This document shows positions 4,021 through 15,044 of a stretch of 18,411 nucleotides of DNA, piece after piece (position 1 is the first letter of the stretch; the number at the start of each line of letters is the position of its first letter). Where the stretch lies: NCBI GenBank assembly GCA_003157575.1, contig PMKA01000425.1:4223-22633 (forward strand). The letters are read 5' to 3'. The stretch comes from Opitutia bacterium. Lineage in GTDB: Bacteria > Verrucomicrobiota > Verrucomicrobiia > Opitutales > Opitutaceae. Below the pieces are notes generated by a model. The model ran no database searches and was not told where the DNA came from. It saw only the letters and a program-made list of their open reading frames with translations. A program made the translations under genes and the position numbers.

Positions 4021-5646
4021 TCACATTCCCTGCGCAGCCTCCAGCAATGAACGCGCTTCTGGATCCGAATGCTTGGACAAAGCCTGAGCTTCAATATGCA
4101 GGCAGACACCCCAAAGACACGCCGCACGGGCATAATGGGGATCATTCTTCAGAGCCAAATCGAATTTCTGGTGCGCAATCCCCCAGAGCCTTCGCGCCTC
4201 TGGCAGATCAACATTGGCCACAGCCTCTGCTTCGTGATTCAAGACGCACCCCCAATCATCTGCAGCCAGAGCACAAGGCTCCGCCTCGAGCGCCTGGCGA
4301 AACTTCTCGCCCGCCTGAGCCCACAAGCGGCGTGCCGCCGGCAGATCGTTCCCAGCCACCCGCAGACCCTCGACATCCAATTCATCGCCCCAACCTATCA
4401 GCGCGGGTCCGTAGCCCGGCCTGATTGCCAACGACATCTGAAATTTCGCAGCAGCGTCCCGCCATAACGCCAGTGACGTCGCTGGATCCATGTCTGCAAC
4501 CGCCCGAGCTTCATGTTCCAGGGCCACGCCCCAATTGTCCGCTGCCAGATACCCCTTTGAATTAAGAGCCAGCGCGCGTCTAAATTTCGCTGCAGATTCG
4601 CTCCACAAACGGCGAGCCTCGGGAAGGTTGTCCTCTGCAATGATGTCGGCCTCGCCTGACAGGCCATTGCCCCAGATCAAGGCAGCCCCGTCATCGTCAG
4701 ATTTCAGCTTCATCGCGCGCTCGTATTTCTCGAGCGCCTGATGCCACAAATCCAGGGCTGCCGGACGGTCAACCTCGCCAACAACCTTCGCTTCCTCCGT
4801 CAATGCAATTCCCCAATTCTTCAGCGCGCTGTACTTGTCGGGCTTGATCTTCAGTGCCAACTGATACTTCTCTGCGGCCTTCTTCCAGAGAGCCCTCGCT
4901 GCCGGCAGGTCGGTCCTGGACAACGCCTTCGCTTCTTCATTCAGTGCGTTTCCCCAGTTGTTCGCCGCCCCGTGTTGATTCGGCAGATTGTCCAGTGCCC
5001 ATTTAAGAACCGCGGCCGCGCGCTCCCACAAAGCCTGCGCCTCCGGGAGGTTCACGGCCGCAACCGCCTGAGCCGACCGGTCGAGCATCACTCCGCAATT
5101 GTTGGCCGGACCGGATTTCCATGGCTCCAGTTTCAACGCCTTCCCGTATTCGGCCTCGGCTTGCAGCCACAATTCACGCGCAACCGCCAGATCCGTCTTT
5201 GCCACCGCCTCCGACTCCTTGTCCATCGCAAAGGCGAAATCGTAAATGGCATCGTAATGGTTGGGACGCTGCTGCAGCGACCACACAAAACACTTCCATG
5301 CCTTCCCCCACAGAACACGTGCCCCGGCGAGATCGGTCGCCGCCATCTTGCGTGCGTCTTCCGACATTTCCACGCCAGACCGCCACGCGAAGTCGGGTGT
5401 CCGATATCGCGATTCCATATCTTCCTCAACCGATTTCGGAAAGACAACGGAAGGGGACGCTGGATTCACGCCGCCCTGATCGGAATTCGCAGTCTCGTGC
5501 ACGGGATTCTGCGGTGTCACACAGCCAGTCAAGACCATGATCGACGCCAACAATGCCAGCAGATTCCCACCTCTCAATACCGGATCAACCGGGGCACAAT
5601 CGCCGAGCATGCCGGTCGCGGGGTTTTGTTTTGAATAGAAGCTCAT
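4021..5646 (-). CDS. Lipoprotein of 47-residue TPR-like repeats
   Basis: 541 residues from the ATG at 5646-5644. The lipobox LLALLASIMVLTGC puts the lipidated cysteine near residue 42. Then follow nine full repeats and one partial, each 47 residues (one is 46). The consensus is roughly WGxALxxEAxAVAxxDLPxARxLWxxAxxKFxxALxLxP. This is a TPR pattern (W4, G8, A20 and P32 equivalents) with an extra 13 residues between the helices, carrying the conserved D-L-P-x-A-R-x-L-W. Such solenoids bind proteins or peptides, and the lipid anchor suggests periplasmic or outer-membrane attachment. GC content looks clearly lower than in the 7573-17366 operon (about 55% against 75% in two sample lines), so it may have a different origin. 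The frame is open upstream to 6069, but that part is repeat sequence beyond a plausible promoter at 5696-5723, so I exclude it. An ATG at 5610 is an alternative start. Confidence 0.8.
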   Translation of the reverse strand: MSFYSKQNPATGMLGDCAPVDPVLRGGNLLALLASIMVLTGCVTPQNPVHETANSDQGGVNPASPSVVFPKSVEEDMESRYRTPDFAWRSGVEMSEDARKMAATDLAGARVLWGKAWKCFVWSLQQRPNHYDAIYDFAFAMDKESEAVAKTDLAVARELWLQAEAEYGKALKLEPWKSGPANNCGVMLDRSAQAVAAVNLPEAQALWERAAAVLKWALDNLPNQHGAANNWGNALNEEAKALSRTDLPAARALWKKAAEKYQLALKIKPDKYSALKNWGIALTEEAKVVGEVDRPAALDLWHQALEKYERAMKLKSDDDGAALIWGNGLSGEADIIAEDNLPEARRLWSESAAKFRRALALNSKGYLAADNWGVALEHEARAVADMDPATSLALWRDAAAKFQMSLAIRPGYGPALIGWGDELDVEGLRVAGNDLPAARRLWAQAGEKFRQALEAEPCALAADDWGCVLNHEAEAVANVDLPEARRLWGIAHQKFDLALKNDPHYARAACLWGVCLHIEAQALSKHSDPEARSLLEAAQGM

Positions 5647-5695
5647 CTTGTATGACGCGATTTGACCGAACTGATCCTCATCTCTTTTTCCTAGA

Positions 5696-5723
5696 ACATT
5701 ACTCAAACCGATTGTCGACTCAA
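5696..5723 (-). promoter_or_regulatory. Possible sigma-70 promoter for the repeat lipoprotein
   Basis: Read on the minus strand: TTGAGT (5723-5718), 16-base spacer, TAATGT (5701-5696). This is a partial match to TTGACA/TATAAT. It would give a leader of about 40-45 bases before the ATG at 5646 and supports that start. It is the most AT-rich patch in the area, but the matches are imperfect. Confidence 0.3.
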
Positions 5724-5745
5724 CAATCGAACGGCGGTTTCGTGC

Positions 5746-5766
5746 GGCGCCGGGGGGACCGGCGCC
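5746..5766. repeat. GGCGCCGG hairpin
   Basis: Arms GGCGCCGG (5746-5753) and CCGGCGCC (5759-5766) pair perfectly over 8 bases around loop GGGGA. It lies about 100 bases upstream of the lipoprotein start and beyond its likely promoter. Its form is that of a REP-like palindromic unit. Confidence 0.5.
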
Positions 5767-5995
5767 CTCCACCGGTTTGCCATCCCGTTGCCGCCAATTC
5801 CGCGCCCAGCCGCTTTGACGATGCACGGACGCCGTCCACGCCCAACAAACTTTACGCCGCATCGGCCCTCCCGCCCCAAGCCTGTTTGAGAGGCTCTCGT
5901 CCGTCGGTGAAGAAGCAGGTTGTTTTATGGTTCGAACGGTTGGGCTGAATCCCGAAGACACCGGGACGCCGTCGAGGATCGCAATCGCTCTGGAA

Positions 5996-6015
5996 ACGCG
6001 ACGAGGGCGTCGCGT
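5996..6015. repeat. ACGCGACG hairpin, copy 1 (intergenic)
   Basis: Arms ACGCGACG (5996-6003) and CGTCGCGT (6008-6015) with loop AGGG, perfectly paired. The same 16 arm bases recur at 9613-9632 with loop GGGG. Flanks are partly alike (GGAA before this copy, GGGA before the other). Confidence 0.65.
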
Positions 6016-6030
6016 CCCCATCGGATATTT

Positions 6031-6053
6031 GTGCGAATTCGTGCCAATTCGTG
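6031..6053 (+). repeat. Short tandem GTGCxAATTC repeat
   Basis: GTGCGAATTC is followed directly by GTGCCAATTC, then GTG. Two 10-base units are 9/10 identical, with a partial third. I recognise this kind of AATTCGTG boilerplate from intergenic DNA of Verrucomicrobia-like genomes. It is too short for a CRISPR or an iteron origin. Confidence 0.4.
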
Positions 6054-6078
6054 GGCAAACGGCCGGCATTGGATCGAT

Positions 6079-6127
6079 CTCCTTTGTCTTCGTTGCCTTC
6101 TGTAAAGCCGATTGGGATTGGCGCCAC
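6079..6127 (-). repeat. AAGGCAAC dispersed repeat, copy A
   Basis: The reverse complement contains GCCAATCCCAATC, then TTTACAGAAGGCAACGAAG, then a purine-rich tail. It aligns with 9158-9216 over about 50 bases with small gaps, including the upstream GTGG-GCCA part. This is the best-preserved intergenic copy. Confidence 0.6.
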
Positions 6128-7572: not shown

Positions 7573-9102
7573 GTGAAAAATACGCCCGGTTCTTCTTTGA
7601 CGGTGAGACGTCCCGTTCGCCCCTTCCTTGCGCCGCTCGTCGTGCTCGCGTTGACCTGCTGCACGATCCTCGGCGCACGCCTGTTCCAGCGGCGGGAGAT
7701 TGCGTATCTCAACCGCCAGCTTTCTCTCGCGCAGACCGACCGGAACGTCGGATCGGTTCGCGAAGTCGCCCGGCGCATCGGGCGCCTGGACAAGTCTCCC
7801 CGGACAAGGCTGCGGGTCGCGGAGATTTTCCTTTCGCTGGATCTCATGGACGATTTCTGGGGAGCGCTGCGCCTGGTCGAGAACGACTCGCCTGAAAGGG
7901 CGGCCTCCATCGAGCGTTTGCGGGCAAAAGGCCTCCTCGCTGCAAACCGGAAGGCAGCCTGCGTGACGTCGCTCCAGCGGTTTCTACGCATGCCCGGACT
8001 GTCGCCGGAACAGAAGGTCGATGCTTTCGATGATCTGGCTGCTGCGCAGTGCGGTCTCGGCCGATGGAACGAGGCCCGCGCCGCTCTCGACGAACGGCTC
8101 GCGCTTGCGGACGCCCCGGCTCCGCGGCTCAAGCGGGCCCGCGTGCTTGCGCGCGCGGGGCGCTGGGCGGAGGTGCGGGGCGAGTTTGCACTGCTGGCAC
8201 GGACGGACGCGTCGGCCCCTGACGTGAAGGAGCTGATGCCGCGGTGGGAACGGGCCGGCCGCGGGCTGGCCGGATTGCCGGCGTGCGACGACGCGTTGAA
8301 CGCAGCGCCCAATGCGCTCAAGCCGCGCCTCGACCGCGCGCGCGTCGAGGCCCGGCTCGGCCTCTGGCAGAATGCGGCGGACGATCTGCAACAGGCGGTC
8401 TCGCTTGCGCCCATGACCCGCGCCCGCCTGCTGCGGCTGCCTCTGGTGCTCGGCGCCCGGCTCGGGATGAAGACGACCAAGGAGGGGATGGAACTGGAGG
8501 ACGCGCAAGGAGCGGAATTGACGAACGTGCCCTGGCTCGCGCCAGGCGCATCCCTGCAACAACTGAACGACCTGGCGCGGGCGGAAGACTGGCAGCAGCT
8601 CGAGGATGTCGATCTTGAAATCGCGGGCGATCCCGCAGGGTGGGCGGACCGTTCGAGGTTCGCCGGGCTGCTCGCCACCCAGGCGGAGATCGAGCTCAAA
8701 CTCGGCTCCCCACGGCGCGCGCTTGCAGACGCAAATGAAGTGTTGAAGCAGATGCCGGGATTTCTGCCGGCCCGGCAGGTTGAGATCGCCGCCCTGCTCG
8801 CAACCGACGACCTTCCTGAAGCGGAGGCCGAAACCGAACGTGCCGTCCGCGAGAACACGGACACCGGGGGCCACGTCCCTGCCTCGCTGGGTGTGCTGGC
8901 GGGTTACGTCTGGCAGCGACAGGGCCGGCATCGCGACGCCGTCGAAGCCTTCTCCGCGTGCCTCGATGTCGCGAGGAGCGCGGACATTCTCCGCGCCCGC
9001 GCGAAGAGTCTGCGGTTCCTGCAGCGCTTCGCCGAGGCCGACCATGATGCGGCCGAGGCCGATGCACTGGCGGCGCCCACCGCGCGGGAGGCTGCGCCAT
9101 GA
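7573..9102 (+). CDS. Membrane-anchored TPR-like protein, first gene of the macroglobulin operon
   Basis: 509 residues from a GTG start, with no clear Shine-Dalgarno. An N-terminal signal anchor lies at about residues 18-38 (PFLAPLVVLALTCCTILGARLF). The rest is alpha-helical with degenerate helix-turn-helix repeats of TPR character, for example AAQCGLGRWNEARAALDERLALA, RARVLARAGRWAEVRGEFALLA, RARVEARLGLWQNAADDLQQAVSLAP and AGYVWQRQGRHRDAVEAFSACLDVA. The soluble part should face the periplasm. The stop overlaps the next start as ATGA (9099-9102), so the alpha-2-macroglobulin gene is translationally coupled. Placement suggests an accessory or scaffold for the macroglobulin/PBP1C pair. That is inference, since no specific family is recognised. 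Codon use matches the two downstream genes. Confidence 0.8.
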   Translation: MKNTPGSSLTVRRPVRPFLAPLVVLALTCCTILGARLFQRREIAYLNRQLSLAQTDRNVGSVREVARRIGRLDKSPRTRLRVAEIFLSLDLMDDFWGALRLVENDSPERAASIERLRAKGLLAANRKAACVTSLQRFLRMPGLSPEQKVDAFDDLAAAQCGLGRWNEARAALDERLALADAPAPRLKRARVLARAGRWAEVRGEFALLARTDASAPDVKELMPRWERAGRGLAGLPACDDALNAAPNALKPRLDRARVEARLGLWQNAADDLQQAVSLAPMTRARLLRLPLVLGARLGMKTTKEGMELEDAQGAELTNVPWLAPGASLQQLNDLARAEDWQQLEDVDLEIAGDPAGWADRSRFAGLLATQAEIELKLGSPRRALADANEVLKQMPGFLPARQVEIAALLATDDLPEAEAETERAVRENTDTGGHVPASLGVLAGYVWQRQGRHRDAVEAFSACLDVARSADILRARAKSLRFLQRFAEADHDAAEADALAAPTAREAAP

Positions 9103-12100
9103 ATGGCGTGCATCGGTGGAAAAGTCTGCGGCGGCTCACGGGCCTGTTTTTTGGTGCGGTGGAGCCACTCCTAATTCCAATCCTCGTTGCAGAAGGCAAC
9201 GGAAGAAACGGAGAAAAAGAGAATAGACAGGGAAAGCCCTCTCAGTCTTCTCCGTTTCCTACTGGAAAAATTCTGGTTTTTGGAATCTCCTGCAAGCAGG
9301 CTCCTACAGCCCGGACCAAACGGTTTTGGACACGTCTCGCGCTCCCTCTCTTGCTTGGCTGGATGGCTTTCGCGTGTGCGGGCTGCGGGCGCGGAAAGCA
9401 GGCCCTCCCGGAGAACACACTCGATGTCAGCCCAAACGCAGGCGGGGTGCTGGCGGCGACGCGAGCGGTCCATCGCTGGCATGAGGATGACGACGAGGCG
9501 ACAGGTTCCAGGCCGTTGCGTCGCGGGGACAGCCTGACGATCTCTTTTCCCCTGCCGATGGCCGCGTCGACGGGGTTCGACCGCCATATCGTGGTCGGAA
9601 TATCTCCCGGGAACGCGACGGGGGCGTCGCGTCTCCAGACAGAGACTCCACTCCAAAGCCAAACCAGAGGTGGAACACCCGGGCTGGAGTCGCCGGTGCA
9701 GATGGTCCCCGCCCTGGCGCTGGATTTCGTCTGGCGGAGCGCAACCGAGGGAGAGGTGACGATCACCGGCCGGCCTGCGCCCATGACGGGATACCGGCTT
9801 CGGCTGCGGCACGGACTGTGCGACGTTGCGGGGGCTCCGGTGGACGCGCCCGGGTGGGGCGTATCCTGGACGCCGGCGCCTTTCAATGTTCAGCTGGAAG
9901 GCTGGTATCGGTGTGCCCCATCGGATCTGGACTGCCCTCTTTCGGCGCAGCCAGTGTTCGGCTTGCGCTTCAGCCACCCGGTTTCGGCCGATGACGTGGC
10001 GGGGACCGTTGTCTGGCGCGACGAGACGGAGAAGACCGTGGCAAGCGACGTCCGCATGGCGACACAGGAGGATCCGGCCGCCGCGATGCGTTTTGAGGTG
10101 ACGCCGCGAAGGCCGCTGGAAGCCGGGCGCCGGTACGAACTCCTGGTTGAGAACACGCCGTGCGCGCTCGGCGGCGGGACACTTCCCTATCCCTTCGTAT
10201 TTCCGCTTGGCCGGACGCAACCGATGGAGATCGAGCGGGTCAGCGCCTATCAACAGCCGCTGACAGGCGCGTTTCTCGCCGTCGTGTTCAACCAGTCGGT
10301 GGATCCGGCTACGGCGCCGTCGCGTGCGTTCAGCGTCACGCCGGCCGTCGAGATCCAGCGCACGGAGGCGCAGGGCGACGAGCTCAGGCTGTTCGGCGCG
10401 TTTGTGCCCGGTGTTCGCTACACCGTGAGGATCGCGGCGGGCATAGGCGGGCGGCGCGGCTTTGCGCTGGCGAAGCCGGAGACGTGGCACGCCACGTTTC
10501 ATGCCAAGCGTCCGGCGGTCATTCTGCCGCGCAGCATCCTGACGACGTCCGCGACGGCCGGCCTGACCGTCGATTTTACGCAGGTGAACACGGGGGTTTT
10601 GCACTGGCGCCTTGCGGATGTGCCCCCTGAAGACATCCTCGCAGTGCGCGCCCGCCTCGACGAATACCGGGTGTGGAGCAAGATACAGCCTGATCCGAAT
10701 TCCGGACGGAATGAGGTCCGCCTGGATCAAACCCGGTTGCTGGTCCCGGCCTTGAAACTTCCGGTCCGGGCCGAGGGCGATTTCGCCGCAGCCGGCGGCG
10801 ACCAGGAGGTGCCGCGATCGCTCGCGTTCACCCCGCAGCAGCTTCCGTCCGGCGTCTATCTGCTCGAAATCGCCGGCCCGACCGATGACGGCCGCGTCGC
10901 GGGAAACCGCGCCCTTTTGCTGGTGAACCGGGAGTTCCTGGTGTGGAAGCAGACGCCGGGCGGCCTGCTCGGCCGGATCTTCGATGTGGTTTCCGGCGAC
11001 CCCGTGGCGGGCGCCGGTTTGCAAATCCTCGGGCACGATGGCGCGCTGCGCGGCGAGGCGACGACCGATGCAGAGGGTGCGTTCTCCATCGTCCCCGCCT
11101 CTCTCAGCGATTACGTGGAGATGGAGGTGGTGCTCATCCGCCGCGGCGATTCCCTTTCAGCGCACTTTGCGGACCTCGGGGCGGGGCTGCGCAGCTACCA
11201 TAGTTGGCGGCAGTCTCCGGCCGCGAACCACGGGAAACCCGCCCGCCAGTGGCTTTTCACCGACCGGTCGATCTATCGCCCGGGCGAGACCATCAAGGTT
11301 CAGGGCATCCTGCGGCGCGTGGGAGAAGAAGGCCGGCTGGAGCTTCCCCCGGCCGGCGAACCCGTGGCATGGCAGTTGAAACGGACCGCGCAGGACGAAC
11401 CTGTGCTCACCGGAAAATCCGTGCTGACGGAAACGGGTTCCTGGGAGGCCGCGCTCGCGCTCCCGGAAAACATCACGACCGGCCGTTACGATCTGGAGGC
11501 GGCGGGGTCCCGTTGCGCAGTGAAGATCGATGAGTTTCGCGCGCCGGCGTTTTCGGTGGAAACGCAACCTCTCGAAGTCGCGGGCGGGCCGCGCAGCCGG
11601 ATTCGCGTGGTGTCGCACTATTTCCACGGCGCTCCGAATGCGAATGCCCTGGTGCGCTGGCGCGCGGTCTGGTCCGCGCACGTTCCGTGCTGCTCGGACG
11701 ACCTGAACGGAGCCTTTCTGCGGACATCGGATTACTGCTCGCCGGACAAGGAACTGCGGCGGCCGGCCTGGGCTGACGGCTCGGAGGAGCGCCGGGCCTC
11801 GGACGAGGAGGCGCGCAGCCTGAGCTTCGACGGCGCGGCGGCCCTCGATGCAAACGGGACGGTCGAGCTGGAGAGCGCGGCCGCGTTCCCGGCAAAGGAG
11901 CGGGCCGCATTCGCAAAGGTGAGCTGGGAAATCTCCGTGATTGCAGCCGACGGGCAGACGGTCGCCGCGGAGCAGAACCAGATCATCCCGCTCGCCCGGG
12001 CGCAGCCCGCGCTCAGCCTCGAGGCAACGGCGCACGGTTCAGAGGTGGAATTGAAGGTCCAGGCGCTGGACGGCGAGGGCGGGCTCGTGCCGGGCGTCCC

Positions 12101-15044
12101 GCTGCACGTCGTGCTTTATCGCGTCGAGGAAAAGAGCGTGCGCGAGCTGTTGTCGCGACACGTGGCCCGGTATCGCAACACACCGGTCTTCACGCAGGTG
12201 ATTGCGAGGGACATCGTCACGCCGTTCTCCGGGACGCTGGAGGCGAAGGGCTGCGGACGTTACGTCGCGGTGGCCACGCTGGGCGACGGGGCGGCGGCTC
12301 CCCGGGCAAGCGACGACGCCTACGTCTGGCGCGACGAGCGGGCGGAGTTCGCCCAGTGGGACGACGCAACGATCGACCTGAAGCCGGACCGCGAATCGTA
12401 CCGCGAGGGAGACACGGCGCACGTTGCGCTGCTCGCGCCGTTCGCGGGGCGGTGCTGGGTCACGGTTGAAACCGGCCGCCTCCTGTACAGCAAGGTTCTC
12501 ACGCTCCCGGCCAACGCGAGCGGTATTGATATTCCTGTGACACCCGCGATGCATCCCAACGCCTATGTCAGCGCGTATCTCTTCCGGCCGTCCGGCGCCG
12601 GCGGGCCGGCGGAGCGCATCGGAAGCTGCGAACTGCGGGTCGCGCGCCCCGAAACGCGCCTCGATATCGCAACCGAACTCGCGGCCCCGAGCGTGGAGCC
12701 CGGAAACCCCGTCCGGGGAACCGTGACGGTCAAATCCGGAGGCCGCCCCGCAGCGGACGCGGAGGTCACGGTCTTCGCGGTCGACGAATCGGTGCTACAA
12801 TACGGCCGGTGGTCGCTCCCCGATCCGGACGAGGTGTCCTTTCCCCGTGTCGAACACGAGGTCGAGACGTCGAGCGGACTGCGCGAATTCGAACAACGGG
12901 ACAAGGACCCGCCCCTCTTTCAAAAAGGATTCGTGCTCGGCGACGGTGGAACGGCATGGCGGAACCGGTTCCCTCGCTCCCGGTTCCGCTCCCTGGCGTT
13001 CTGGCAGGGCCGCCTGAAGACGGACGCGGACGGACGCACGCACTTCGCGTTCGACGCTCCGGACAACCTGACCGCCTACCGCATCGTCGTCGTCGCGCAC
13101 CGCGGCGCGGAGGCTTTCGGCCGGGGCTCGTGTCTCGTGCAGGTCGCGCGCCGGCTTCAGGCGGAGCCCGCATTGCCGCGTTTCGTGCGCGCGGGGGACG
13201 ACGTCGATCTGCGCGTGGTGCTCCGCCAGCGCGAGGCGGTCCGGCTTCCCGTCCACGTCGAATGCACTGTGGACGGGGCGGTCGTCGGCGGGGCCGTCGG
13301 CGCCGACGCGATCCTCGATCAAGGGCTGCCGCTCCCCGTGGTCTTCAGGGCGAAGGTCGGCGCGGAAAGCACGAAGCTACGGGTGAAATTCGCCGTCCGT
13401 GCGGGCGGCGGTCCGGGTGGAATGGGCGGGCCGCCCCTGTTGGGCGACGAAGTCGAAATCGAAATCCCGGTGCGCGCCGCCACGGTCGTCCGGCGCGACA
13501 GCGCCTCGGGGGAGATCCCGACGGAGGGCTGGTCGCCCGCGGCGGCGCTGCCCGCCCCCTGCCGCGAGGCGACGGGGAGCGTCGACCTGGTGATTTCGCG
13601 TTCCCCGTGGCTGCCGCTTTTTGAAGGCCTGCCGCGCCTGCTCGATTATCCACACGGCTGCTGTGAACAGGTCTCCTCCCGGGTGCTCTCCTATGCGCTC
13701 ATGGCGGGCCTGCTCCGGACGCTTCCGGACGGCGCCGCGCGCGCGCCGGATTACGAGCGCCGGGTGACCGAGGGCCTGGCCCGTCTCGCCCGGGCGCAGC
13801 TGCCGGAAGGCGACATGCCGTACTGGCCGGGTGGAGACACCGCGCACCCGTTCGTCACAATCCAGACCGCGTGGGCGGCGGCCGAGGCCCGGCGTTCCGG
13901 TCTGGGCGTGTCGGCGGGGTTTGCGGCGCGCCTGCAGGAGGCGCTGACCCGCATCGTGCGCCGGCAGGACGGCGTGCGCGTGGACGCCGCGCAGCGGGCG
14001 TTTGCGCTGATGGTGTTCGCGTCCCTCGATGCCGGCACGAAACCCGCGGCCGAAGCGCTGGAGATCTACCAGCAACGAGACGAGCTCGGCGACGACGGAC
14101 GCGCGTTCCTGGCGCTCGCGCTGCACCGCCTCGACATTCTCCCGGACGAGAAGAGGCAGCTGCTCGCCGAATTGGACCGGGAGCCGCTGGCGGCGGCCTT
14201 CGAGCCGGCTCTCTTCAACTCGCCCGCGCGGACGGCCGCGCTGCGGATCTGCGCCCGTGCGGAGATTCAGGGCCGGACGTGGACGGAATCCGTGCGGGCG
14301 GAACAACGCCGGCTTCTCGCAACCCTCACGGCGCAGTCGCACGACTTCTCAACGCAGGAAAACCTCTGGATGCTGCTCGCGTTCCGGGCGCTCGTTCGCG
14401 CCGGGACGGATGCCCCCGGGCCGGCGTTGAGCCCGCCGTATCCCGGAAGCATGGCCTCGGCGGACGGAGAATCGGCAGGCTGGCACGACCAGCCGTTGGC
14501 CGGGTTTCTGAAACGCTTTGGGGAGCCGGCGTCCGCCGCCGGCGGGCGGACGTATTATCTACGGGCAACGTACCAGCTGCCGGGCCGAGAGGAGCGCGAC
14601 GACCGCGGTTTCCGCATCGAGCGCGTCGTCCGGAACCTCACCGCGCCTGGGCGCGACGGTTCAGCCGCCGCCCCGTGCCGCATCGGCGACGAACTCATGG
14701 TTACCTTCCGTGTGGTCGCGGAACGCGCACAGGCCTACGTCGCGATGGAGGAATCGTTGCCCGCCGCATTCGAGACGGTGGACCCGGACTATTATCGCGC
14801 GACCCACCGCGAGCGGATGGCCGTTGGCGGAGGAGACCGTGAGCCGGGCCTGTCCCACTGGGAAAAACGCGACGACCGCACGCTCTGGTATTTCGACTCG
14901 ATGGACGCCGGTGCGCAGAGTTATTCCGTGATCGTGCGGGTGACGTCGACGGGGCGGTTTCACTGGCCCGGTGCGATTATCTCCCCCATGTACGACCACC
15001 GGTTTTCCGGGATCAGCCAAGGCCAGGAGATCGAGGTTCGCTGA
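9099..15044 (+). CDS. Bacterial alpha-2-macroglobulin lipoprotein (YfhM-like) with repeat-derived insertions
   Basis: 1981 residues, longer than the 1653 of E. coli YfhM. Bacterial alpha-2-macroglobulins are thought to trap attacking proteases in the periplasm: cleavage of a bait region exposes a thioester that bonds the protease. Seen here are a hydrophobic segment with lipobox ACAGC (lipid cysteine about 96), macroglobulin-like beta domains (about 110-710), the MG motif TDRSIYRPGE (721-730), FAVDESVL near 1228, the alpha-2-macroglobulin family core FWQGRLKTDADGRTHFAFDA (from about 1298) and the thioester motif GCCEQ with cysteines at 1521 and 1522. An all-helical thioester domain follows (to about 1800), then C-terminal beta domains. 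The start overlaps the previous stop (ATGA). Two oddities stand out: about 75-90 residues separate this start from the lipoprotein signal, and residues about 168-198 contain a genomic palindrome. Both look like translated repeat DNA. pbpC follows after three bases. Confidence 0.92.
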   Translation: MNGVHRWKSLRRLTGLFFGAVEPLLIPILVAEGNGRNGEKENRQGKPSQSSPFPTGKILVFGISCKQAPTARTKRFWTRLALPLLLGWMAFACAGCGRGKQALPENTLDVSPNAGGVLAATRAVHRWHEDDDEATGSRPLRRGDSLTISFPLPMAASTGFDRHIVVGISPGNATGASRLQTETPLQSQTRGGTPGLESPVQMVPALALDFVWRSATEGEVTITGRPAPMTGYRLRLRHGLCDVAGAPVDAPGWGVSWTPAPFNVQLEGWYRCAPSDLDCPLSAQPVFGLRFSHPVSADDVAGTVVWRDETEKTVASDVRMATQEDPAAAMRFEVTPRRPLEAGRRYELLVENTPCALGGGTLPYPFVFPLGRTQPMEIERVSAYQQPLTGAFLAVVFNQSVDPATAPSRAFSVTPAVEIQRTEAQGDELRLFGAFVPGVRYTVRIAAGIGGRRGFALAKPETWHATFHAKRPAVILPRSILTTSATAGLTVDFTQVNTGVLHWRLADVPPEDILAVRARLDEYRVWSKIQPDPNSGRNEVRLDQTRLLVPALKLPVRAEGDFAAAGGDQEVPRSLAFTPQQLPSGVYLLEIAGPTDDGRVAGNRALLLVNREFLVWKQTPGGLLGRIFDVVSGDPVAGAGLQILGHDGALRGEATTDAEGAFSIVPASLSDYVEMEVVLIRRGDSLSAHFADLGAGLRSYHSWRQSPAANHGKPARQWLFTDRSIYRPGETIKVQGILRRVGEEGRLELPPAGEPVAWQLKRTAQDEPVLTGKSVLTETGSWEAALALPENITTGRYDLEAAGSRCAVKIDEFRAPAFSVETQPLEVAGGPRSRIRVVSHYFHGAPNANALVRWRAVWSAHVPCCSDDLNGAFLRTSDYCSPDKELRRPAWADGSEERRASDEEARSLSFDGAAALDANGTVELESAAAFPAKERAAFAKVSWEISVIAADGQTVAAEQNQIIPLARAQPALSLEATAHGSEVELKVQALDGEGGLVPGVPLHVVLYRVEEKSVRELLSRHVARYRNTPVFTQVIARDIVTPFSGTLEAKGCGRYVAVATLGDGAAAPRASDDAYVWRDERAEFAQWDDATIDLKPDRESYREGDTAHVALLAPFAGRCWVTVETGRLLYSKVLTLPANASGIDIPVTPAMHPNAYVSAYLFRPSGAGGPAERIGSCELRVARPETRLDIATELAAPSVEPGNPVRGTVTVKSGGRPAADAEVTVFAVDESVLQYGRWSLPDPDEVSFPRVEHEVETSSGLREFEQRDKDPPLFQKGFVLGDGGTAWRNRFPRSRFRSLAFWQGRLKTDADGRTHFAFDAPDNLTAYRIVVVAHRGAEAFGRGSCLVQVARRLQAEPALPRFVRAGDDVDLRVVLRQREAVRLPVHVECTVDGAVVGGAVGADAILDQGLPLPVVFRAKVGAESTKLRVKFAVRAGGGPGGMGGPPLLGDEVEIEIPVRAATVVRRDSASGEIPTEGWSPAAALPAPCREATGSVDLVISRSPWLPLFEGLPRLLDYPHGCCEQVSSRVLSYALMAGLLRTLPDGAARAPDYERRVTEGLARLARAQLPEGDMPYWPGGDTAHPFVTIQTAWAAAEARRSGLGVSAGFAARLQEALTRIVRRQDGVRVDAAQRAFALMVFASLDAGTKPAAEALEIYQQRDELGDDGRAFLALALHRLDILPDEKRQLLAELDREPLAAAFEPALFNSPARTAALRICARAEIQGRTWTESVRAEQRRLLATLTAQSHDFSTQENLWMLLAFRALVRAGTDAPGPALSPPYPGSMASADGESAGWHDQPLAGFLKRFGEPASAAGGRTYYLRATYQLPGREERDDRGFRIERVVRNLTAPGRDGSAAAPCRIGDELMVTFRVVAERAQAYVAMEESLPAAFETVDPDYYRATHRERMAVGGGDREPGLSHWEKRDDRTLWYFDSMDAGAQSYSVIVRVTSTGRFHWPGAIISPMYDHRFSGISQGQEIEVR
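9158..9216 (+). repeat. AAGGCAAC dispersed repeat, copy B (inside the macroglobulin ORF)
   Basis: Contains GTGGAGCCACTCCTAATTCC and, from 9187, TTGCAGAAGGCAACGGAAG and AAACGGAGAA. It aligns with the reverse complement of 6079-6127. It is translated in frame as residues about 21-39 (VEPLLIPILVAEGNGRNGE) of the macroglobulin. Confidence 0.6.
9205..9258. repeat. Long inverted repeat enclosing a second hairpin
   Basis: GAAACGGAGAA (9205-9215) is the exact reverse complement of TTCTCCGTTTC (9248-9258). Inside the loop, AGGG (9229-9232) pairs with CCCT (9237-9240) around AAAG. The 5' arm is the tail of copy B. The structure suggests that the inserted repeat unit is itself palindromic. Confidence 0.55.
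9289..9300. repeat. CCTGC-AA-GCAGG hairpin before the lipoprotein signal
   Basis: A perfect 5-base stem with a two-base spacer, within CTCCTGCAAGCAGGCTCCTA. I recognise this wording as similar to the GGAGCCTGCTTGCAGG-type palindromes that recur in intergenic DNA of several bacteria. It is translated as SCKQA, shortly before the hydrophobic segment of the macroglobulin signal. Confidence 0.4.
9613..9632. repeat. ACGCGACG hairpin, copy 2 (in the macroglobulin ORF)
   Basis: Arms ACGCGACG (9613-9620) and CGTCGCGT (9625-9632) with loop GGGG. The arms are identical to those at 5996-6015. It is translated in frame as NATGASR (residues about 172-178), within a polar segment (TETPLQSQTRGGTPG) unlike the surrounding beta domain. 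Confidence 0.65.

What the first reader, a model, noticed from the sequence alone, without database searches (positions are those of the whole stretch)
9141..9320. Dispersed repeat lodged between the coupled start codon and the lipoprotein signal of an alpha-2-macroglobulin
The only upstream in-frame ATG (9099) overlaps the previous stop as ATGA, a classical coupled start. The lipoprotein signal (hydrophobic run, lipobox ACAGC near residue 96) begins only about 75 residues later. The DNA between holds a repeat copy (9158-9216) shared with intergenic DNA at 6079-6127, an 11-base inverted repeat (9205-9215/9248-9258) and a CCTGC-AA-GCAGG hairpin. The insertion keeps the frame, so the signal either works with a long N-terminal extension or is initiated internally. 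Either way, export of the protease trap may be changed. Repeat elements inserted in frame in genes are known for Rickettsia palindromic elements, but I know of no case in a signal region of this family.
Basis: partly seen in the sequence, partly recalled or inferred. Interest (0 to 1): 0.7.

Follow-up and report, generated by a model that had tools for sequence, protein, structure and literature searches.

The report
Repeat DNA inside an export-signal region
Two small mobile DNA repeats sit in frame between the start codon and the export signal of a bacterial protease-trap gene, probably giving the protein about 57 extra amino acids; such insertions are known in this bacterial family, but this position is unusual.

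Summary
The A2M gene (9099-15044) keeps what looks like its ancestral start: an ATGA overlap and a Shine-Dalgarno 7 nt upstream, both also in an orthologous locus. In 11 aligned orthologues the lipobox Cys is at residue 21-26; here it is at 96. The extra DNA (about 9162-9332, 171 bp, open only in the gene's own frame) is two dispersed repeats end to end: a MITE-like inverted-repeat element (R3) and a reversed GTAG-headed REP, which has 62 further matches in this genome and surrounds a RAYT transposase gene. A second in-frame insert (about 9597-9689) carries a different REP. That REP also lies between start codon and signal peptide of a binding protein elsewhere in the genome (absent from 16 of 16 homologues aligned) and in a variable ImuB linker. 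Most likely: near-neutral in-frame insertion at permissive sites, translated as a disordered extension, with the downstream signal still used; export is untested. Intragenic GTAG REPs are published for Opitutus terrae, which appears to be of the same family, and a MITE-derived signal peptide for Yersinia, so this is a new member of a known kind in an unusual place.

The parts
7573..9102 (+). upstream TPR-type gene, overlaps the A2M start as ATGA
   Evidence: ORF list; weak TPR matches; a 511-aa ORF in the same position in L064
9086..9091 (+). Shine-Dalgarno GGGAGG, 7 nt before ATG 9099
   Evidence: GGAGG at the same distance in L064
9099..15044 (+). bacterial alpha-2-macroglobulin, 1981 aa
   Evidence: Pfam MG2, A2M_BRD, A2M and bMG10 above cut-off
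9162..9282 (+). R3, MITE-like inverted-repeat element, left part of insert 1 (boundaries approximate)
   Evidence: 67% to L172 over 9162-9290, 72% to L171 over 9187-9287, 71% to L054 over 9187-9264; 11-base inverted repeat
9283..9332 (-). REP1, GTAG-headed REP (hairpin 9289-9300, GTAG head 9307-9304 on the minus strand) with a flank shared with other copies; right part of insert 1
9336..9386 (+). lipoprotein-type signal core (residues 80-95) and Cys96
   Evidence: Cys96 invariant in 11 rows; the -3 residue is Cys, unusual for a lipobox (motif recalled)
9597..9689 (+). insert 2, about 31 residues in frame, absent from the 11 orthologues aligned
   Evidence: residues 171-192 have pLDDT below 50 between predicted strands
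9604..9639 (-). REP2 palindrome inside insert 2
   Evidence: 26 matches in the own genome at E <= 0.1, itself included; contexts
5992..6020 (-). another REP2 copy, near the 5' end of ORF 4021-6069
   Evidence: 90% to 9609-9637
6078..6119 (-). partial R3 copy, inverted relative to insert 1

Best explanation
Insert 1 is a composite of two mobile palindromic repeats, a MITE-like R3 element and a reversed GTAG-type REP, that went in frame into the n-region of the lipoprotein signal of an A2M protease trap. A second REP family sits in frame in a loop further on. Translation starts at the ancestral coupled ATG 9099 and reads through the repeats, giving a disordered extension of about 57 residues before the hydrophobic core and Cys96. 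The insertions persisted because both sites tolerate extra residues. Shown by sequence: repeat identity, absence from the orthologues aligned, kept frame, conserved start context, a RAYT-type gene surrounded by REP1 units in this genome and a frame with a weak RAYT match between REP2 units in a same-genus genome. Inferred: spread by RAYT, translation of the extension, use of the downstream signal, near-neutrality.
For: Repeat copies; orthologue alignment; conserved ATGA and Shine-Dalgarno; only the gene frame of the 171 bp is open among six, and no ATG/GTG/TTG lies between 9159 and 9351; ten REP1 units around the RAYT of G000:C98; a second gene with the same architecture; both inserts predicted as low-confidence, coil regions.
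Against: No expression or protein data. An open frame is expected in 5.3% of mononucleotide shuffles of the 171 bp, so openness alone is weak. Low pLDDT in stretches that have no counterpart in the alignment is weak evidence of disorder, and the model is poor overall (mean pLDDT 64). The extension makes a second hydrophobic stretch (residues 16-30), which could disturb targeting. The -3 lipobox residue is atypical. Three of five RAYT loci of this genome (C126, C19, C492) have neither REP in the stretches looked at. The assembly is a fragmented, 73.6% complete genome.
Confidence: 0.75

Rival explanations
1. The repeats are untranslated: initiation is internal, at a rare start codon near the signal core, and 9099-9332 acts as a leader.
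For: Di Nocera et al. 2013 hold that many REPs at ORF N-termini are really outside the gene (PMC3733652, passages). CTG 9273 and ATC 9285 are in frame.
Against: The coupled ATG with its Shine-Dalgarno is shared with L064; no ATG, GTG or TTG lies between 9159 and 9351; the frame stays open through repeats diverged by about 30%.
Confidence: 0.15
2. The insertion changes targeting: the new hydrophobic stretch (residues 16-30), made by native sequence joined to R3, acts as the signal or as a membrane anchor, so the trap is released, anchored or misplaced.
For: Its 15-residue hydropathy of 2.19 equals that of the core at 80-94 (2.03) and lies within the range of the cores of P0002-P0011 (1.67-2.68).
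Against: It contains Glu and two Pro; a strongly positive run precedes the second stretch and Cys96 is invariant. This weighing is inference; no signal predictor was run.
Confidence: 0.12
3. Assembly artefact or chance similarity.
For: G000 is a fragmented assembly: 546 contigs, 73.6% complete.
Against: The entry P0001 is recorded on 3 contigs, the longest 33,904 bases, although these may come from the same sample. Both inserts keep the frame. A second gene shows the same architecture.
Confidence: 0.03

Closest known systems
Intragenic GTAG REPs of Opitutus terrae (Di Nocera et al. 2013, PMC3733652; abstract, one section and passages read)
   Same: GTAG head, short hairpin, inverted pairs, a RAYT-type gene among the repeats, in-frame copies inside genes, some genes with two inserts. 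O. terrae appears to be G008, in the window's family: G008 and the O. terrae record behind P0094 share the contig length 5,957,605.
   Different: Here the REP is joined to a MITE-like element and lies between a conserved start codon and an export signal. The O. terrae families were not compared letter by letter (figures and supplements not seen).
Rickettsia palindromic elements (as described in PMC2229807 and PMC3733652, passages read)
   Same: Palindromic repeats inserted in frame in protein genes and tolerated.
   Different: Other sequences and another phylum; the RPE-type repeats in PMC3733652 are CGTC-tagged, REP1 is GTAG-tagged.
MITE-derived signal peptide in Yersinia YPO1552 (Delihas 2007, PMC2229807, passages read)
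   Same: A mobile repeat contributes to the N-terminal signal region.
   Different: There the MITE helps to form the signal of a new protein; here it lies ahead of the signal core of a conserved protein.
Bacterial alpha-2-macroglobulin next to a PBP1C-type gene (E. coli yfhM-pbpC, recalled)
   Same: A2M domains, a lipoprotein-type Cys, a transglycosylase/transpeptidase gene directly downstream.
   Different: N-terminal extension and loop insert.

Membership tests
GTAG REP with RAYT | GTAG at one end of a short palindrome | tested here: met
   GTAGGAGCCTGCTTGCAGG on the minus strand
GTAG REP with RAYT | high copy number, often in inverted pairs | tested here: met
   63 matches at E <= 0.001, itself included; pairs
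GTAG REP with RAYT | RAYT gene flanked by the same REP | tested here: met
   RAYT at G000:C98:17592-17840 with four REP1 units on one side and six on the other; the other four RAYT matches of the genome are not so flanked
GTAG REP with RAYT | mobilised by the RAYT | not testable with these tools
   needs an experiment
REP2 as a RAYT-associated REP | RAYT gene flanked by the repeat | tested here: inconclusive
   G004:C60 has REP2 units on both sides of a Y1_Tnp match that is below the Pfam cut-off (22 bits against 23)
MITE (R3) | terminal inverted repeats, dispersed copies, no own gene | tested here: met
   copies in the own genome and in G002 with inverted ends; the window copy has degenerate ends
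MITE (R3) | target-site duplication and a parent transposase | not tested
   boundaries too diverged; no parent looked for
Rickettsia palindromic element | sequence membership in the Rickettsia families | not tested
   no comparison with RPE sequences was made; resemblance is in mode of insertion
Bacterial alpha-2-macroglobulin | A2M domain set | tested here: met
   four Pfam families above cut-off
Bacterial lipoprotein | conserved lipobox Cys after a hydrophobic core | tested here: inconclusive
   Cys96 invariant, but Cys at -3 and a 95-residue leader; no signal predictor available

The most novel reading that the evidence does not exclude
In this lineage, signal-peptide n-regions and inter-domain linkers are recurrent landing sites where REP palindromes are kept as translated protein, so that REP activity keeps creating long N-terminal extensions and hypervariable linkers (as in ImuB) that can alter export or regulation.
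Probability: 0.2. Interest if true: 0.65.

Novelty: new member of a known kind. Interest (0 to 1): 0.42.

Why it matters
It gives two genes in one genome where a REP lies between a start codon supported by homologues and an export signal, with no usual start codon in between, so the standard dismissal of N-terminal REPs as misannotation can be tested by one proteomics run. It also points to several repeat families being read as protein in this lineage, including a variable linker of the mutagenesis protein ImuB, a natural series for asking how REPs enter genes and why they stay.

Tried and rejected
Chance similarity: rejected on copy number and on a RAYT locus surrounded by the same repeat. 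Strong mRNA structure as the function: the fold of 9162-9332 has z = -1.5, and 14 of 200 shuffles fold as well. Plasmid origin: no match in the plasmid collection. A2M orthologues in the same genus: 4 of 5 same-genus genomes have no match and G004 only a distant one (32% over part of the protein).

REP1 in other coding genes: 9 of 40 clusters (delimited by hand) lie in frames open 150 bp on both sides. Besides the A2M I scanned 3 of these against Pfam (L104, L114, L016); only L114 had a family, NAD kinase, with the REP upstream of the domain; 5 were not scanned. REP2: 14 of 25 clusters lie in such frames. Besides the A2M I scanned 7 (L070, L077, L080, L081, L084, L085, L090), one frame each; 3 had a family (L077, L085, L090). 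L078 is the copy at 5992-6020, whose minus frame is ORF 4021-6069; 5 were not scanned. The codon score used separates true from other frames only moderately. The GluQRS copy of REP2 is weak (88%, E = 0.07), so that case rests on the alignment. The 0-2 mismatch pattern search is largely background (255 against 161 control places per strand). A screen for further REPs before signal-like segments gave three candidate proteins (L160, L186, L196), but its filters missed the A2M and L077 cases themselves, so it is no census.

Rows left out: of the 18 A2M hits (self included) were aligned; P0012-P0018 (25-33% identity) were not. Of 120 listed ImuB proteins 23, and of 120 listed binding proteins 17, were aligned. 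Of 29 genomes with a GluQRS-type match, 11 including the own were aligned.

Full report
Observation. The reading frame 9099-15044 encodes a 1981-residue bacterial alpha-2-macroglobulin (MG2, bait-region, A2M and bMG10 domains above cut-off). It overlaps the preceding TPR-type gene as ATGA and has GGGAGG 7 nt before the ATG. The orthologous locus L064 has a 511-aa ORF and the A2M in the same order, the same ATGA and GGAGG at the same distance; a 758-aa ORF follows there, not scanned for domains. In the window the next gene has transglycosylase and transpeptidase domains.

Comparison with relatives. I aligned the N-termini of P0001, the ten best other hits (44-51% identity, 1859-1875 aa) and L064 (1877 aa): 12 rows, of which P0004 and L064 are near-identical. 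In the 11 others the lipobox Cys lies at residue 21-26, directly after an ordinary hydrophobic core; here it is at 96, and it is an invariant column in an 11-row alignment without L064. The alignment shows a second gap of 31 columns in the 11 others, at about residues 167-197 (9597-9689).

What insert 1 is. Between 9162 and 9332 lies DNA of 49% GC in surroundings of mostly 60-78%. It consists of two repeats. R3, about 9162-9282, has a relative in same-genus genome G002 at 67% over 9162-9290 (L172), another there at 72% over 9187-9287 (L171), and one in the own genome at 71% over 9187-9264 (L054). REP1, about 9283-9332 on the minus strand, is GTAGGAGCCTGCTTGCAGG plus a flank shared with other copies, with matches running to between 9323 and 9332. 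REP1 accounts for 63 matches in the own genome, itself included, and also occurs in G002, G003, G004 and G005, but has no match at E <= 0.001 in G001 (hits scored per genome are capped there). Many copies stand in inverted pairs. Ten units surround a RAYT-type gene on G000:C98, four on one side and six on the other; of the other four RAYT matches in this genome, C219 has REP1 units more than 1 kb away and C126, C19 and C492 have neither REP in the stretches looked at.

Insert 2 holds REP2, typically TGGAGACGCGACGCCCTCGTCGCG, with 26 matches at E <= 0.1, itself included. In G004 REP2 units lie on both sides of a frame with a Y1_Tnp match just below the Pfam cut-off. AlphaFold2 on residues 1-330 with ten homologues gives low overall confidence (mean pLDDT 64), with 1-57, 61-77 and 171-192 below 50, a helix at 81-94 (the signal core), and insert 2 between strands 163-166 and 200-203. 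This fits disordered additions but is weak evidence, since the inserted residues have no counterparts in the alignment.

Is it translated? 9162 and 9333 are both first codon positions; the gene frame is the only one of six without a stop across the 171 bp, and 5.3% of mononucleotide shuffles would be open. R3 has diverged by about 30% from its relatives, so the insertion is probably not recent (inference), yet the frame is open. No ATG, GTG or TTG lies between 9159 and 9351. These points favour initiation at 9099 with a long extension. Di Nocera et al. 2013 (PMC3733652; abstract, section 16 and passages read) caution that many N-terminal REPs may lie outside the true gene; the conserved start and the missing alternatives argue against that here, without proving it.

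Does it alter export? Residues 16-30 (LFFGAVEPLLIPILV, hydropathy 2.19), made by native sequence joined to R3, are as hydrophobic as the core at 80-94 (2.03) and as the cores of P0002-P0011 (1.67-2.68). So the protein has two signal-like stretches. The positive run RTKRFWTR before the second and the invariant Cys96 make the second the likelier working signal; this is inference. The -3 position of the lipobox is Cys, which is unusual (motif recalled).

Not a lone case. In the same genome an iron-complex-type binding protein (L077, P0140; C299) reads MNSR, then 20-23 extra residues ending in the REP2-encoded GDATPPS, then RL and the signal core. The 16 other rows aligned lack these residues; 10 of the 16 begin MRS, and a more distant homologue in G010 begins MNPRLH and goes straight into its core. 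Reading the DNA, no in-frame ATG, GTG or TTG lies between its start and its core. ImuB (L085) carries REP2 in a linker that is absent from 5 of 23 aligned proteins and highly variable in the rest, with peptides that look like translated repeats in P0021, P0022, P0027 and P0032; the DNA of those was not seen. GluQRS (L090) has the longest segment of 11 aligned rows at a weak REP2 match; G004 has a long segment of its own there. In same-genus genomes REP2 lies in open frames of a YwiC-like protein (L181, G004) and of a TIR-domain protein (L196, G002), not checked against orthologues.

Known and new. Di Nocera et al. [quoted passage not shown] O. terrae appears to be G008, which genome search places in the window's family: the contig length 5,957,605 is shared with the O. 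terrae record behind P0094. Delihas 2007 (PMC2229807, passages read) describes a MITE forming part of a signal peptide in Yersinia, and in-frame RPE inserts in Rickettsia. Eight paper searches (listings only except for the two papers named) showed no paper on REPs between start codon and signal core; the library lacks most subscription journals and supplements were not open to me. So the kind is known; the position, seen in two genes of one genome with starts supported by homologues, is the new detail.

Verdict. Observation confirmed and main interpretation supported; a new member of a known kind, of moderate interest, with a cheap decisive test.

Noticed in passing
L077:1439-2602 (G000:C299:13841-15004): Binding-protein gene with REP2 in frame between start codon and signal core; 16 of 16 aligned homologues lack the 20-23 residues.
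   Followed up: yes
L085:899-2542 (G000:C80): ImuB with REP2 in a linker that is absent from 5 of 23 aligned proteins and highly variable in the rest.
   Followed up: partly
L090:1045-2013, minus strand (G000:C47): GluQRS with an extra segment at a weak REP2 match.
   Followed up: partly
L160 start 1114 (G005:C67): Possible third case: a REP1 copy in frame about 30 residues after an ATG and before a strongly hydrophobic segment; not checked against orthologues.
   Followed up: no
L181:1000-1851 (G004) and L196:407-1807 minus (G002): REP2 in the open frames of a YwiC-like protein and a TIR-domain protein.
   Followed up: no
window 4021-6069, minus strand: The longest frame of this ORF starts upstream of a REP2 copy (5992-6020), but a lipobox-like segment (LLALLASIMVLTGC) lies about 165 residues further on, so the true start is probably downstream.
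   Followed up: no
L115 (G000:C98:16000-19550): RAYT-type gene among ten REP1 units, including tandem copies 33 bp apart.
   Followed up: partly
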